A model generated the notes under the pieces. The model was not told where the DNA came from. It saw only the letters and a program-made list of their open reading frames with translations, and ran no database searches. Below, piece after piece: positions 7,296 to 34,054 of a DNA stretch of 38,253 bases. Origin of the DNA: Acidobacteriota bacterium (GTDB lineage: Bacteria; Acidobacteriota; Vicinamibacteria; Vicinamibacterales; UBA8438); NCBI GenBank assembly GCA_009861545.1, contig VXME01000006.1, positions 1-38,253 of the forward strand, written 5' to 3'. How positions within the stretch are numbered: position 1 is the stretch's first letter; each line of letters starts with the position of its first letter. Position numbers and translations under genes: made by a program.

Positions 7296-7709
7296 ATGAG
7301 GACGCTGGCGATTGCGCTCGTGAGTGTCGGTGTGCTGCTGGCCGCGGCAACCGGAGCCGCGCACCACTCGTTCTCGGCGGAGTTCGACATCGAGAAGCCG
7401 ATCACGCTCGAGGGCAGGCTGACCGAGCTGGAGTGGGTCAATCCCCACGGGTGGATCCACATGGATGTCGAGAATCCCGACGGCACGGTGACGAACTGGG
7501 CGGTCGAGATGGGCAACCCGACCGCGCTGCTGCGGCGCGGCCTGCGCCGGGGCGACTTTCCGCCCGGAATCGAGTTCGTGGTCGAGGGGTACGAGGCGAA
7601 GGACGGCTCGCCGACCGCCAATGCAATCACCGTGACGTTTCCCGACGGGCGCGACTTCTTCGCCGGCTCCTCGGGCACCGGTGCTCCGGTGCCGCCGGGG
7701 CAGCGCTAG
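7296..7709 (+). CDS. DUF6152 family exported protein (137 aa)
   Basis: ATG at 7296 follows a GGGGGGGAG ribosome site. A signal peptide (residues 1-22) leads directly into AHHSFSAEFD, then ITLEGRLTELEWVNPHGW, the hallmark N-terminus of DUF6152 proteins. These are small periplasmic beta proteins abundant in Acidobacteria and proteobacteria. The likely fold is a small OB-like barrel. Function is unknown, but in these genomes such genes often sit beside PDLQGxW genes, as here, which suggests a shared process. The stop codon is built into a long hairpin (7706-7742) that probably ends the transcript. Confidence 0.88.
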   Translation: MRTLAIALVSVGVLLAAATGAAHHSFSAEFDIEKPITLEGRLTELEWVNPHGWIHMDVENPDGTVTNWAVEMGNPTALLRRGLRRGDFPPGIEFVVEGYEAKDGSPTANAITVTFPDGRDFFAGSSGTGAPVPPGQR

Positions 7710-7742
7710 GAGTCTGCGCCGTAGAACGGCGTAGACTTCTAG
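7706..7742 (+). repeat. REP-like hairpin containing the stop codon of the DUF6152 gene
   Basis: CTAGGAGTCTGCGCCGT (7706-7722) and ACGGCGTAGACTTCTAG (7726-7742) pair over 17 positions with two G-T wobbles and a 3-base loop. The TAG at 7707-7709 is the stop codon of the DUF6152 gene. The left arm recurs at 34036-34054 on the other strand (20 of 23 bases identical, counting the next few bases), again embedding a TAG stop codon. Related half-copies lie at 7804-7859. It may serve as terminator or mRNA-stabilising structure and may be a dispersed repeat family. Confidence 0.75.
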
Positions 7743-7773
7743 TCAGGCCGGTTGGGCGGCAATCGGATGCCGC

Positions 7774-7796
7774 AGCGCGACCGCAGCGGTCGCGTT
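7774..7796 (+). terminator. strong hairpin in intergenic region
   Basis: CGCGACC (7776-7782) and GGTCGCG (7788-7794) form a perfect stem around GCAGC, extended by an A-T pair and a G-T wobble at the base. It lies 65 bases after the DUF6152 stop. The short TT tail makes a Rho-independent terminator possible but not certain; it may be part of the adjacent repeat array. Confidence 0.4.
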
Positions 7797-7803
7797 CGGC
7801 GAC

Positions 7804-7859
7804 GATTGTCGGGCTAGGAGTCTTCGCCGTAGATTGTCGGGCTGGGAGTCTTGCGCCGC
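7804..7859 (+). repeat. two tandem 28-bp direct repeats related to the 7706 hairpin
   Basis: GATTGTCGGGCTAGGAGTC (from 7804) recurs exactly 28 bases later as GATTGTCGGGCTGGGAGTC (from 7832), each followed by TTCGCCG or TTGCGCCG. The second half of each unit matches the arm of the 7706 hairpin (CTAGGAGTCTGCGCCG). They look like partial or decayed copies of the same repeat. Confidence 0.6.
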
Positions 7860-7929: not shown

Positions 7930-8712
7930 GTGTCCACGTGGTCCATGCCGGTTGTCGTCGCGGCCGTCTGTCTTTGTCTGTTCGGGGCGCCGCCGGCGGC
8001 CGCGCAGACGCCATCCGGCGCCGCGGAAGCGTACACGCCGCCGCGCACGCCGGACGGGCAGCCCGACCTGCAGGGCATCTGGCAGGCGCTCAACACCGCC
8101 GCCTGGGACATCCAGGACCACCGGCCGAGCGCCGGGGTACCGGCCGGCCAGGGGGTCGTCGACGGGAACGAGATCCCGTACCAGCCGTGGGCGCAGGCGC
8201 AGAAGCAGGAGAACTACGAGAATCGGCTCACCGCGGATCCCAATCGGCAGTGCTATCTGCCGGGCGTGCCGCGGATCACCTACATGCCGTATCCCTTCCA
8301 GATTCTCCAGTTCTCCGACCGCGTCCTGATCCTGTACGAGTACGTGCACGCCTCGCGCACCGTCTACATGGACGGCAGCCCGCACCCGGAGGGGCACATC
8401 GATTTCTGGATGGGGGACTCGCGCGGGCGCTGGGAGGGCGACACGCTGGTGGTCGACGTGATCCACTTCAACGACCGGACGTGGTTCGACGACGCCGGCA
8501 ATTTCCACAGCGAAGCCCTGCACGTGGTCGAGCGCTACACGCCGACCGGGCCGGATCACCTGCGCTACGAGGTCACCATAGAGGACCCGAAGGTGTTCAC
8601 GCGGCCCTGGACGATGTCCATGCCCCTCTATCGCCGGCAGGAAGCGAACGTCCAGCTCCTGGAGTACGAGTGCTTCGCCTACTCCGAGGAGGAGCTGGCG
8701 GCCGACAAGTGA
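7930..8712 (+). CDS. exported PDLQGIW-family protein (260 aa), function unknown
   Basis: GTG at 7930 is preceded by GGAGGTGAT (from 7917), a near-perfect ribosome site; the frame is open further upstream but without support. A signal peptide (about residues 1-27, ending AAAQT) is followed by DGQPDLQGIWQ. The core SRGRWEGDTLVVDVIHFND and the following RYEVTIEDPKVFTRPWT are nearly identical to those of the next gene, 31 bases downstream, so the two are tandem paralogues and probably one operon. The conserved Arg/Glu/Asp-rich core may be a binding or catalytic surface; no known enzyme family is recognised. Confidence 0.87.
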   Translation: MSTWSMPVVVAAVCLCLFGAPPAAAQTPSGAAEAYTPPRTPDGQPDLQGIWQALNTAAWDIQDHRPSAGVPAGQGVVDGNEIPYQPWAQAQKQENYENRLTADPNRQCYLPGVPRITYMPYPFQILQFSDRVLILYEYVHASRTVYMDGSPHPEGHIDFWMGDSRGRWEGDTLVVDVIHFNDRTWFDDAGNFHSEALHVVERYTPTGPDHLRYEVTIEDPKVFTRPWTMSMPLYRRQEANVQLLEYECFAYSEEELAADK

Positions 8713-32857: not shown

Positions 32858-33385
32858 ATGATGCAGCCGCTGGATCCCCTCCATACCCGCGCCCCGGTCT
32901 TCTCTCCGCGCAGCGGCGCACCGGGGACCGAGGTTGCCGTGGAAACCCCCGATCTCCCGGCCCTGACTCCCGTGTACCTCGGCATGGGGGCGACCCGCTC
33001 CAGCTTCGAGGTCCTCCGCCAGCTCGTCACGAGCGAGCGGGGCGAGATGTCCGCGGTTGTCGAAGTGCCCGACTGGGCCACGGCCGACCGCACCCACTAC
33101 TTCGTGCTCGTCGACGTCTACTTCCGGCCGCTGGCGGTCTCTGCGGCCTTTCACGTGACGGAGTCCGATGGGACGCTGCGGCGCCGCGGACGGATCACGG
33201 ACGCCACGGCCGGCTGCCTGACCCTGAGCGAAGCGGGCGACGGGGAGGAGTTCTACGTGTTGACAGGTGACGTGCAGGAACTTACGCTGGGAGACGAGAT
33301 TCTGGTCGAGGGGACTCTCGGCGAGTCGCCCGGCTGCGGGCAGGGGACGGCCCTGCAGGTCACGCGCGCCGAACGGTTGGACTGA
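32858..33385 (+). CDS. two-domain beta protein, IPT/TIG-like plus OB-like C-terminus (175 aa)
   Basis: ATG ATG at 32858 follows GTAGGATGGCGG. Residues about 12-105 look like an immunoglobulin-like IPT/TIG domain (VFSPRSGAPGTEVAVETPD, then YFVLVDVYFRPLAVSAAFHV). Residues 110-175 (GRITDATAGCLTLSEAG, FYVLTGDVQELTLGDEILVE, SPGCGQGTALQVTRAERL) resemble small OB-like domains such as DUF5818, with two cysteines (CLTL and PGCGQ). No signal peptide is seen, so it may be cytoplasmic or periplasmic by other routes. It is followed 64 bases later by a retropepsin-like gene. Function unknown. Confidence 0.7.
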   Translation: MMQPLDPLHTRAPVFSPRSGAPGTEVAVETPDLPALTPVYLGMGATRSSFEVLRQLVTSERGEMSAVVEVPDWATADRTHYFVLVDVYFRPLAVSAAFHVTESDGTLRRRGRITDATAGCLTLSEAGDGEEFYVLTGDVQELTLGDEILVEGTLGESPGCGQGTALQVTRAERLD

Positions 33386-33449
33386 ACCCCCTCCGTCGTA
33401 CGGAGCGCGCATCATCGGCGCACGAGCGATGCGCGACGAGGAGCGATTC

Positions 33450-33827
33450 ATGGGGTTGACAGGGGCGAAGGTGCGGTTGCGGAACCCCCGGCTTCCGGAT
33501 CTGGAGCCGGTCGAGATCGATGCGCTGGCCGACACGGGATCGATGCACCTGTGCATTCCGCGCTGGCTGCAGCGGCGGCTGCAGCTCGAGGAGTCCGAAA
33601 AGAAACCGGTGACCCTGGCCGACGGCAGGGTCGTGCAGGTTCCCTACGTCGGCCCGCTCGAGTTGCGCTTCGAGAACCGGGTCGGGTTCACGGGAGCGCT
33701 GGTCATGGGCGAGCAGCCCCTGCTGGGGGCCATCCCCATGGAGGATATGGATCTGGCCGTCGTGCCGCGGACACGACAGGTTGTCGTGAACCCGGAGAGT
33801 CCCGACGCGGCCAGGAGCAGGGCGTAG
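33450..33827 (+). CDS. retropepsin-like aspartic protease, clan AA (125 aa)
   Basis: ATG at 33450 is chosen because GAGGAG at 33438-33443 sits 6 bases upstream; an ATG at 33429 is also in frame. The protein has a single DTG active-site motif (IDALADTGSMHLCIP, Asp near residue 30), the second strand pair (VQVPYVGPLELRF), and a closing ALVMGEQPLLGAIPMEDMDL that is typical of bacterial single-domain clan AA proteases. These act as dimers, each chain giving one aspartate. Signal peptide absent. Its stop (33825-33827) is in TAGGAG, like the stops in the two REP-like hairpins. Confidence 0.85.
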   Translation: MGLTGAKVRLRNPRLPDLEPVEIDALADTGSMHLCIPRWLQRRLQLEESEKKPVTLADGRVVQVPYVGPLELRFENRVGFTGALVMGEQPLLGAIPMEDMDLAVVPRTRQVVVNPESPDAARSRA

Positions 33828-33839
33828 GAGCCGCAGAGA

Positions 33840-33863
33840 AGCCCACTTCCGTTGGAGTGGGCT
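33840..33863 (+). terminator. hairpin after the retropepsin-like gene
   Basis: AGCCCACT (33840-33847) and AGTGGGCT (33856-33863) form a perfect 8-bp stem with an 8-base loop, 13 bases after the stop. No T-run follows, so it may act as a weak terminator or mRNA end. Confidence 0.5.
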
Positions 33864-34004
33864 GCAGATCTGGACGGGCCCGGGGAGTTGCTCCACCGGT
33901 GCAGGTGCCGCCGCGGTTGGAGCGGACTCCGGCTCCCCGTCCGCCTCGCGCCCCGAAACGCCTCGCGAGCGCGGCCTTTCGGCCCATCCCGCCCGCTCCA
34001 TGAC

Positions 34005-34054
34005 CTTGCGCCGCAGCACTTCGCGTCGCTGCGTTCTGCGGCGCAAGCTCCTAG
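34005..34054 (-). repeat. second REP-like hairpin, containing the stop codon of the amidohydrolase gene
   Basis: Read on the minus strand, CTAGGAGCTTGCGCCGCAG (34054-34036) is followed by a 19-base loop and CTGCGGCGCAAG (34016-34005), giving a perfect 12-bp stem. TAG at 34053-34051 is the amidohydrolase stop. The first arm is a close copy of that at 7706. The element lies in a convergent intergenic space. Confidence 0.7.

What the first reader, a model, noticed from the sequence alone, without database searches (positions are those of the whole stretch)
7706..7742. REP-like hairpins that embed the stop codon of the upstream gene
The 17-bp wobble-paired hairpin at 7706-7742 begins with the TAG of the DUF6152 gene. 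A close copy of its arm (CTAGGAGxxTGCGCCGxAGAACG, 20 of 23 identical) begins with the TAG of the amidohydrolase gene at 34053 on the other strand, 26 kb away. A TAGGAG also follows the retropepsin gene at 33825. A dispersed repeat that supplies stop codon plus RNA hairpin is unusual.
Basis: seen in the sequence. Interest (0 to 1): 0.6.

Follow-up and report, generated by a model that had tools for sequence, protein, structure and literature searches.

The report
CTAG-targeting mobile repeats at stop codons
The hairpins belong to a family of about a hundred or more small mobile DNA repeats that sit in the rare four-letter site CTAG, and because CTAG in this genome is so often the end of a gene (a TAG stop codon), the repeats end up on stop codons without breaking genes.

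Summary
The arm CTAGGAGNNTGCGCCG is a real dispersed repeat: 76 exact copies of TAGGAGNNTGCGCCG in the window's genome, none for the reversed control. Many copies begin at the TAG of an upstream gene. However, the repeat does not supply the stop codon; the stop codon was its target.

The arm equals the terminal inverted repeat (GAGTCTGCGCCGCAGAA) of an IS1182-family DDE insertion sequence. Intact copies in a related genome lie between duplicated 4-bp sites, CTAG or CGAG. A sister IS1182 group shows unambiguous 4-bp duplications. CTAG is depleted about eight-fold here, and half of the repeat-free CTAGs are stop codons (23 of 45), against 14 of 18 repeats flanked by CTAG on both sides (p=0.09). 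A relative from another genus has the empty site: the same gene ending ...CGCTAG with no repeat.

The window's copy (7706-7817) is one unit of two hairpins bounded by CTAG. Its pairing is conserved by compensatory change. No REP-type tyrosine transposase was found in the genome. GTAG-REPs supplying TAG stops are already published.

Verdict: new variant of a known kind. What moves the asymmetric two-hairpin unit remains open.

The parts
7296..7709 (+). DUF6152 gene; its stop codon is the TAG of the CTAG site
   Evidence: Pfam PF19649, E 5.5e-30; coding score 54.7 against negative scores in the other frames tested
7706..7742 (+). hairpin 1 (hp1): CTAG + GAGTCTGCGCCGT / AGA loop / mirrored arm + CTAG; the arm differs at one of 17 positions from the IS1182-family terminal inverted repeat
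7743..7813 (+). hairpin 2 (hp2) of the same unit, long-loop variant with an inner GCGCGACCGCAGCGGTCGCG hairpin
   Evidence: covariation measured on the short-loop copies
7706..7817 (+). whole repeat unit, 112 nt, bounded by CTAG at 7706-7709 and 7814-7817; the closest full-length copies elsewhere (82.9-97.4% identical) match from about 7691-7705 to 7812-7819
7814..7845 (+). internally deleted second copy sharing the CTAG (CTAGGAGTCTTCGCCGTAGATTGTCGGGCTGG)
   Evidence: reading of the sequence
7846..7859 (+). truncated third arm (GAGTCTTGCGCCGC)
   Evidence: reading of the sequence
33945..34054 (-). family D unit (hp1 + a different hp2), 110 nt, left CTAG 34054-34051, right tetranucleotide CGAG
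   Evidence: row L037
34051..35505 (-). amidohydrolase gene whose TAG stop is the CTAG of the D unit
   Evidence: Pfam PF01979, E 1.5e-25; score 209
33267..33827 (+). aspartyl protease (retropepsin-like) gene; the TAGGAG at its end is not a copy of the repeat

Best explanation
The hairpins are copies of small non-autonomous mobile repeats that share their outer ~20 bases with an IS1182-family DDE insertion sequence and that insert, like it, into CTAG. Steps shown: (1) the autonomous IS has the arm as its terminal repeat at both ends and is flanked on both sides by the same 4 bases, CTAG or CGAG. (2) The small units lie between CTAG sites, form tandem arrays that share a CTAG, and keep their two-hairpin fold by compensatory change. 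(3) CTAG is strongly depleted in this genome and half of the repeat-free CTAGs are stop codons, so an element confined to CTAG lands on stops. (4) At the DUF6152 stop a relative of another genus keeps the empty CTAG. Inferred: the 4-bp duplication leaves the stop intact, so such insertions are nearly neutral and survive; the IS1182 transposase moves the small units in trans; after insertion the hairpins become the 3' UTR of the upstream gene and may affect mRNA stability, but they lack the U-run of an intrinsic terminator.
For: Arm equals IS end: 11 contig ends and contig C122 carry CTAGGAGTCTGCGCCGCAGAA followed (in C122) by the start of an IS1182 transposase, and 4 contig ends carry a second end. 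Intact 1581-1583 bp IS in G006 with this repeat at both ends and flanks CTA/TAG in 4 copies and CGA/GAG in 2, of the 6 whose both ends were seen. Its transposase scores 363 bits against a cut-off of 270 for NF033551. Sister IS1182 group: 4-bp duplications CTAG, CTAG, CTAC, GTAA, CTGA, TTAC in 6 of 6 copies. The same end and CTAG target recur in IS with 50-82% identical transposase in records titled Gammaproteobacteria and Rhodothermales, among others. CTAG: 48 in 400 kb against 372 expected from trinucleotides; CTAG is a coding stop in 26 of 94 strand readings against 123 of 2,494 for other NTAG. Stops: 26 of 60 repeat sites, 14 of 18 doubly CTAG-flanked units, 23 of 45 repeat-free CTAGs. Empty site in G005. 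Hairpin covariation: 60 double-changed cells against 20.5 +/- 3.8 shuffled. IS left end detected in 7 of 15 repeat-bearing and 0 of 13 repeat-free family genomes.
Against: The two-hairpin unit is not a classical MITE: only its 5' end carries the terminal repeat, and hp2 shows no convincing similarity to the IS (best hits 8-12 nt). Only 18 of 50 complete copies have CTAG on both sides, and non-CTAG copies do not show direct 4-bp repeats. Four repeat-bearing genomes (G013, G018, G021, G023) have no IS1182 hit, and IS1182 hits of any kind do not separate the groups (11 of 15 against 8 of 13); drafts lose IS copies, so this is weak either way. The stop excess over repeat-free CTAG (14/18 vs 23/45, p=0.09; 26/60 vs 25/90 per strand, p=0.055) leaves room for an added preference for stops or for selection.
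Confidence: 0.77

Rival explanations
1. A REP/BIME system moved by a REP-associated tyrosine transposase: short palindromes tagged by a tetranucleotide, cut and joined as single strands.
For: Size, copy number, palindromes, tandem and mixed arrays and conserved complementarity resemble REPs. In GTAG-REPs the tag also provides TAG stops (PMC3733652 passage). The unit is asymmetric, as single-strand elements are (for the lack of a second terminal repeat; the comparison is recalled).
Against: No Y1_Tnp in G000 or in 13 of 15 repeat-bearing family genomes; it is commoner where the repeat is absent (8 of 13). The tag is CTAG, not GTAG or CGTC (49 CTAG, 2 GTAG of 78). The arm is a DDE transposon end.
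Confidence: 0.07
2. The repeat is kept at gene ends by selection because it provides a useful stop plus 3' hairpin (mRNA stabiliser or terminator); mobility is secondary.
For: Both hairpins covary. Where C-type copies have CCAG in place of CTAG, the frame CAG GAG TCT GCG CCG TAG meets a second in-frame TAG inside the arm (reading). The DUF6152 stop carries a repeat in three congeners. There is a slight excess at stops.
Against: No U-run after the hairpin: the scan finds no terminator at 7706-7817. Half of the repeat-free CTAGs are stops anyway. Neighbouring genes show no excess of convergent pairs (4 convergent, 4 divergent, 16 tandem, 22 unclear, 4 not scored, of 50). G005 and others do without it.
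Confidence: 0.1
3. The hairpins are pre-existing palindromes that an IS1182-family element uses as landing sites, as IS1272 targets and replaces stem-loops; hp1 would be target, not relic.
For: IS1272, an IS1182-family member, targets and replaces hairpins (PMC5678879 abstract and passages; PMC4923244 passages).
Against: The copies here keep 4-bp duplications in plain CTAG or CGAG sites, and the flanks shown do not read as hairpins. [quoted passage not shown]
Confidence: 0.06

Closest known systems
IS1182-family insertion sequences and their MITEs (ISMac2-derived MITEs listed for Methanosarcina acetivorans, one with direct-repeat size 4; PMC3852290 table passage)
   Same: Same transposase family (NF033551, Pfam DDE_Tnp_1 and DUF772), shared terminal repeats, 4-bp duplication; TIR-TIR elements of about 112 bp occur in G006
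   Different: The window's units carry the terminal repeat at one end only as a whole, are built of two hairpins, and reach high copy number
MITEPsy1 / IS5-group elements (100 nt; duplicate CTAG or YTAA; PMC3189936 passages; IS5 duplicates Py-T-A-Pu, most often CTAG, PMC5493358 passage)
   Same: Small element duplicating a 4-bp site, CTAG preferred; CTAG noted there as under-represented in bacteria
   Different: Other IS family, both ends inverted repeats, few copies; stop codons as targets not discussed in the passages seen
GTAG- and CGTC-tagged REPs (PMC3733652 passages)
   Same: Tetranucleotide tag at a palindrome; tag often provides a TAG stop; dimers and arrays
   Different: Tag CTAG; no Y1 transposase in this genome; end shared with a DDE insertion sequence
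IS1272 (IS1182 family, stem-loop replacing; PMC5678879)
   Same: Same broad family
   Different: IS1272 replaces hairpins without target duplication; the IS here duplicate 4 bp at CTAG-like sites

Membership tests
REP / RAYT system | GTAG or CGTC tag next to the palindrome | tested here: not met
   Of 78 exact arm matches found without using the tag: 49 CTAG, 13 CCAG, 4 CTGG, 2 GTAG, 10 others
REP / RAYT system | tyrosine (Y1) transposase in the genome | tested here: not met
   PF01797: none in G000; 2 of 15 repeat-bearing and 8 of 13 repeat-free family genomes
REP / RAYT system | short palindromes, about 100 or more copies per genome | tested here: met
   76 exact; 210 with up to 2 mismatches, control 17, each palindrome may count twice
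MITE of an IS1182-family IS | terminal repeat shared with a co-resident autonomous IS | tested here: met
   in G000 itself only IS ends and the N-terminal part are assembled
MITE of an IS1182-family IS | terminal repeat at both ends of the unit | tested here: not met
   3' ends of C, D and D' units are GATTGTCGGG, TTTCGGGGCG and TTTGGCGGCG; met only by hp1 taken alone and by the ~112-bp elements of G006
MITE of an IS1182-family IS | same target duplication as the IS | tested here: inconclusive
   CTAG is its own reverse complement; 18 of 50 complete units have CTAG on both sides, and the rest show no direct 4-bp repeat
IS1182 family (the autonomous IS) | transposase over the curated NCBIfam cut-off | tested here: met
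   NF033551, 363 bits, cut-off 270; the sister group scores 170, below the cut-off
Intrinsic terminator | U-run directly after the stem | tested here: not met
   one search lists one site, at 7949-7966, none at 7706-7817
Rfam structured RNA | match to a covariance model | tested here: not met
   only one chance-level hit, E 0.99, 16.5 bits against a gathering score of 80

The most novel reading that the evidence does not exclude
A third tag class of REP-like repeats, CTAG-tagged, in which an asymmetric two-hairpin unit is moved by a DDE (IS1182-type) transposase recognising one terminal repeat plus a structured second end. The transposase's preference for a strongly avoided tetranucleotide works as a safe-site guide to stop codons, and the system has spread across several phyla of host-associated bacteria.
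Probability: 0.3. Interest if true: 0.65.

Novelty: new variant of a known kind. Interest (0 to 1): 0.42.

Why it matters
It gives a simple, testable reason why mobile repeats in GC-rich genomes sit on stop codons: a target site that is rare inside genes but survives in C+TAG gene ends. It also shows a REP-like repeat tied to a DDE transposon end rather than to a tyrosine transposase, and it warns that 'the repeat supplies the stop' can be read the wrong way round. The end sequence is shared by transposons in records from several phyla.

Tried and rejected
IS5 family: suspected from YTAR-like targets. DUF772 had no hit in G000, but the IS body is missing from that draft; the intact IS in G006 is IS1182 by NCBIfam.

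Hairpin-replacing insertion as for IS1272, intrinsic terminator and Rfam RNA: rejected or unsupported.

hp2 as a piece of the IS: only 8-12 nt matches. Of 115 distinct hp2 hits there, 109 passed a loose test for an arm upstream and at least 4 of the other 6 show a diverged one by eye; most loci were fetched through the arm, so this is biased.

A direct test of hp1 outer tetranucleotides (duplication or paired stem) is inconclusive: left/mid pairs such as CCAG/CTGG (7) and CCGG/CCGG (2) suit a stem, but CTGG is also the common mid form (18 CTAG/CTGG).

My first codon model (used for the stop or strand scores) was trained partly on antisense ORFs, as made plain. The old figures were similar or higher: 26 of 60 sites; background 14 of 28 and 32 of 45; 13 of 18. 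The tetranucleotide counts and the flanks do not depend on the model.

Dropped before counts: one search listed 100 of 210 places, and only these 100 were fetched; 22 of the 96 C copies (length, long loop or N) were left out and 7 more before the alignment (67 used); copies without both ends were left out (50 kept), and CTAGs within 600 bases of a stretch end were left out of the background. In one search the reading frames for L350, L352, L354, L355, L357, L358, L360 and L361 are not reliable; one search was used instead.

Full report
What is there. The hairpin at 7706-7742 is real and very stable and its first TAG is the stop of a DUF6152 gene. The copy of its arm on the other strand at 34054-34032 matches 20 of 23 bases and its TAG ends an amidohydrolase gene. 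In the whole genome (G000, 6.35 Mb in 174 contigs) the arm TAGGAGNNTGCGCCG occurs 76 times exactly, with 0 for the reversed control. A pattern that leaves the CTA out, GGAGNYTGCGCCGYAGAA, occurs 78 times exactly and 210 times with up to 2 mismatches, control 17. So the tag could be read off without bias: of the 78 exact matches 49 are preceded to give CTAG, 13 CCAG, 4 CTGG, 2 GTAG and 10 others. In an unbiased 400-kb sample CTA precedes 2 of 4,100 GGAG.

Families. The 100 listed places were fetched with their flanks and fall into groups that share the 5' end and differ beyond it: IS ends A and B, a two-hairpin unit C (window 7706), and two-hairpin units D and D' (window 34053 is D). C is about 88 bp, or 112 in the long-loop form of the window; D and D' are about 105-112 bp. 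The window's unit runs from CTAG at 7706 to CTAG at 7814-7817. Its closest full-length relatives among the fetched copies (82.9-97.4% identical) match from about 7691-7705 to 7812-7819, while the copies with the short loop align only up to the loop. A deleted and a truncated copy follow directly (7814-7859). Tandem units sharing one CTAG are common (for example L293 and L328; L360 and L252 share a related tetranucleotide).

What the arm is. Eleven contig ends carry the identical sequence CTAGGAGTCTGCGCCGCAGAA-AACAGATGCG..., the mark of a multi-copy element that breaks the assembly. Contig C122 runs further into it and encodes the start of a transposase matching NF033551, IS1182 family. G006, a three-contig genome of the same family, has whole copies of 1581-1583 bp. 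Both ends read GGAGTCTGCGCCGCAG or, in two copies, GGAGTCTGCGCCGTAG on the left; of the 6 copies with both ends seen, 4 have flanks CTA...TAG and 2 have CGA...GAG. This is a 4-bp duplication of CTAG or CGAG; a 2-bp duplication inside C..G would look the same. The transposase scores 363 bits against the cut-off of 270 for IS1182 and has DDE_Tnp_1 and DUF772 domains. A second IS1182-like group in G006 (1457 bp, other ends, 170 bits) shows duplications CTAG, CTAG, CTAC, GTAA, CTGA and TTAC in 6 of 6 copies compared, which settles the 4-bp length for that relative.

Why stop codons. In 400 kb of this genome (20 stretches chosen by position) CTAG occurs 48 times against 372 expected from trinucleotides. 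A codon model trained on GC3-filtered ORFs and checked on three window genes of 94 CTAG strand readings a coding stop, against 123 of 2,494 for the other NTAG (p about 3e-12). Of 45 repeat-free CTAGs, 23 are the stop of a coding ORF on one strand or the other. Of 18 complete repeats with CTAG on both sides, 14 are at a stop on one side or the other, and 26 of 50 complete repeats of any tag are. By the left site alone, 26 of 60 CTAG-tagged places are stops. The differences from repeat-free CTAG are not significant (p=0.09 and 0.055). Target choice therefore accounts for most of the association, with room for a modest extra effect of selection.

The stop came first. At the DUF6152 stop, 12 loci from the family were compared by reading the sequence after the gene. 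The window's genome, G001, G003, G013, G019 and G006 have a repeat at a TAG. They are not the same repeat: C in the window, hp1 with a D'-like hp2 in G001, a diverged copy in G003, C-like in G013 and G019, and an element of the ~112-bp TIR-TIR kind in G006. G005, of another genus, reads ...CAGCGCTAGACACG..., the same CTAG stop (in frame) with an ATG 15 bases after it and no repeat. G015 ends in AATAG and G018, G011 and G026 in GATGA, all without the repeat; G023 has CTAG without the arm. The frame was verified for G001, G005 and G015 only, besides the window gene itself.

Two hairpins under constraint. In 67 C units from several genomes the proposed 29 pairs are formed in 89.9% of cells, with 60 cells changed on both sides against 20.5 +/- 3.8 in shuffles and 17-37 when slid. 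The shuffle control does not remove relatedness, but six hp2 pairs change on both sides, some in ten or eleven sequences. This can reflect RNA function, a folded single-strand or cruciform stage, or recognition of a palindrome by the transposase; the data do not decide.

Mechanism and its weak point. The shared end and shared CTAG site make the IS1182 transposase the likely mover. But the C and D units carry that end on one side only, and hp2 has no convincing similarity to the IS. Classical MITE status is therefore not met, and trans-mobilisation is an inference. The IS left end was detected in 7 of 15 repeat-bearing and 0 of 13 repeat-free family genomes (p=0.007), whereas IS1182 hits of any kind do not separate them (11 of 15 and 8 of 13). 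Y1_Tnp, the REP transposase domain, points the other way (2 of 15 and 8 of 13, p=0.016).

Spread. Among 60 genomes (own and 59 relatives) the repeat is in 15, all of the same family and none of 32 genomes of other families in the order. The 80 listed titles include Vicinamibacterales/Vicinamibacteria and Acidobacteria but also Gammaproteobacteria, Nitrospirales, Chloroflexi, Gemmatimonadetes/Longimicrobiales, Rhodothermales, Latescibacterota and Aminicenantes. Among the fetched loci, transposases 50-82% identical to the G006 one carry the same end, in records titled Gammaproteobacteria (L251, L285, L235, L237), Nitrospirales (L281), Longimicrobiales (L286, L288, L289), Latescibacterota (L282) and Rhodothermales (L292), and in L348, whose title was not listed. 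CTAG lies on both sides in L251, L292 and L348; L285 has CTAG on one side and CGAG on the other. Some of these records are MAGs whose binning may err. That they come from marine-sponge communities is my recollection of such record names, not a tool result. The G006 contig has the same length as OY282382.1, so G006 is probably that record.

Literature. GTAG-REPs 'often provide' TAG to flanking ORFs (PMC3733652, passage). IS5 duplicates Py-T-A-Pu, mostly CTAG, and CTAG is under-represented (PMC5493358, passage). MITEPsy1 duplicates CTAG or YTAA (PMC3189936, passages). IS1182-derived MITEs are listed for Methanosarcina (PMC3852290, table passage). IS1272 replaces stem-loops (PMC5678879, abstract and passages; PMC4923244, passages). 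No paper of the library holds GAGTCTGCGCCG as text, and the searches listed none that, by title and abstract start, describes CTAG-targeted repeats at stop codons. Subscription papers are not covered.

Noticed in passing
L210-L215 (G006): A second IS1182-like group (1457 bp, ends CAGCCCGTGGTGAAAGTC) duplicates 4-bp sites; one copy sits directly against a GAGTCTGC element at a shared CTAG (L212).
   Followed up: partly
L223, L227, L228: Other IS1182 relatives in G003, G017 and G011 show inverted repeats of the CAGCCCGTGG type, preceded by CTAG in L227 and L228, so the CTAG preference may be general in this clade.
   Followed up: no
L230-L349: The same 21-base transposon end occurs in MAGs of several phyla with transposases 50-82% identical to the Vicinamibacterales copy: possible exchange within a symbiont community, or an old conserved end.
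   Followed up: partly
L286, L288, L289, L326 and L261, L303, L254, L305: Other internal sequences behind the same end (AACCACGACTGCTATC..., ATGATCGTAGCGAG...) suggest further related elements not described here.
   Followed up: no
L293, L328, L360, L252: Tandem arrays of C units share a single tetranucleotide (CTAG or a variant) at each junction, as expected for repeated insertion into the tag.
   Followed up: partly
window 33828-33866: A separate hairpin (AGCCCACT...AGTGGGCT) follows the retropepsin gene; unrelated to the repeat.
   Followed up: no
L221, L222 (G003): A 1790-bp IS1182-like element with ends TAGTGCCAGCCAGAAAACCCC / GGGGTTTTCTGGCGGACACTA; target site not worked out.
   Followed up: no
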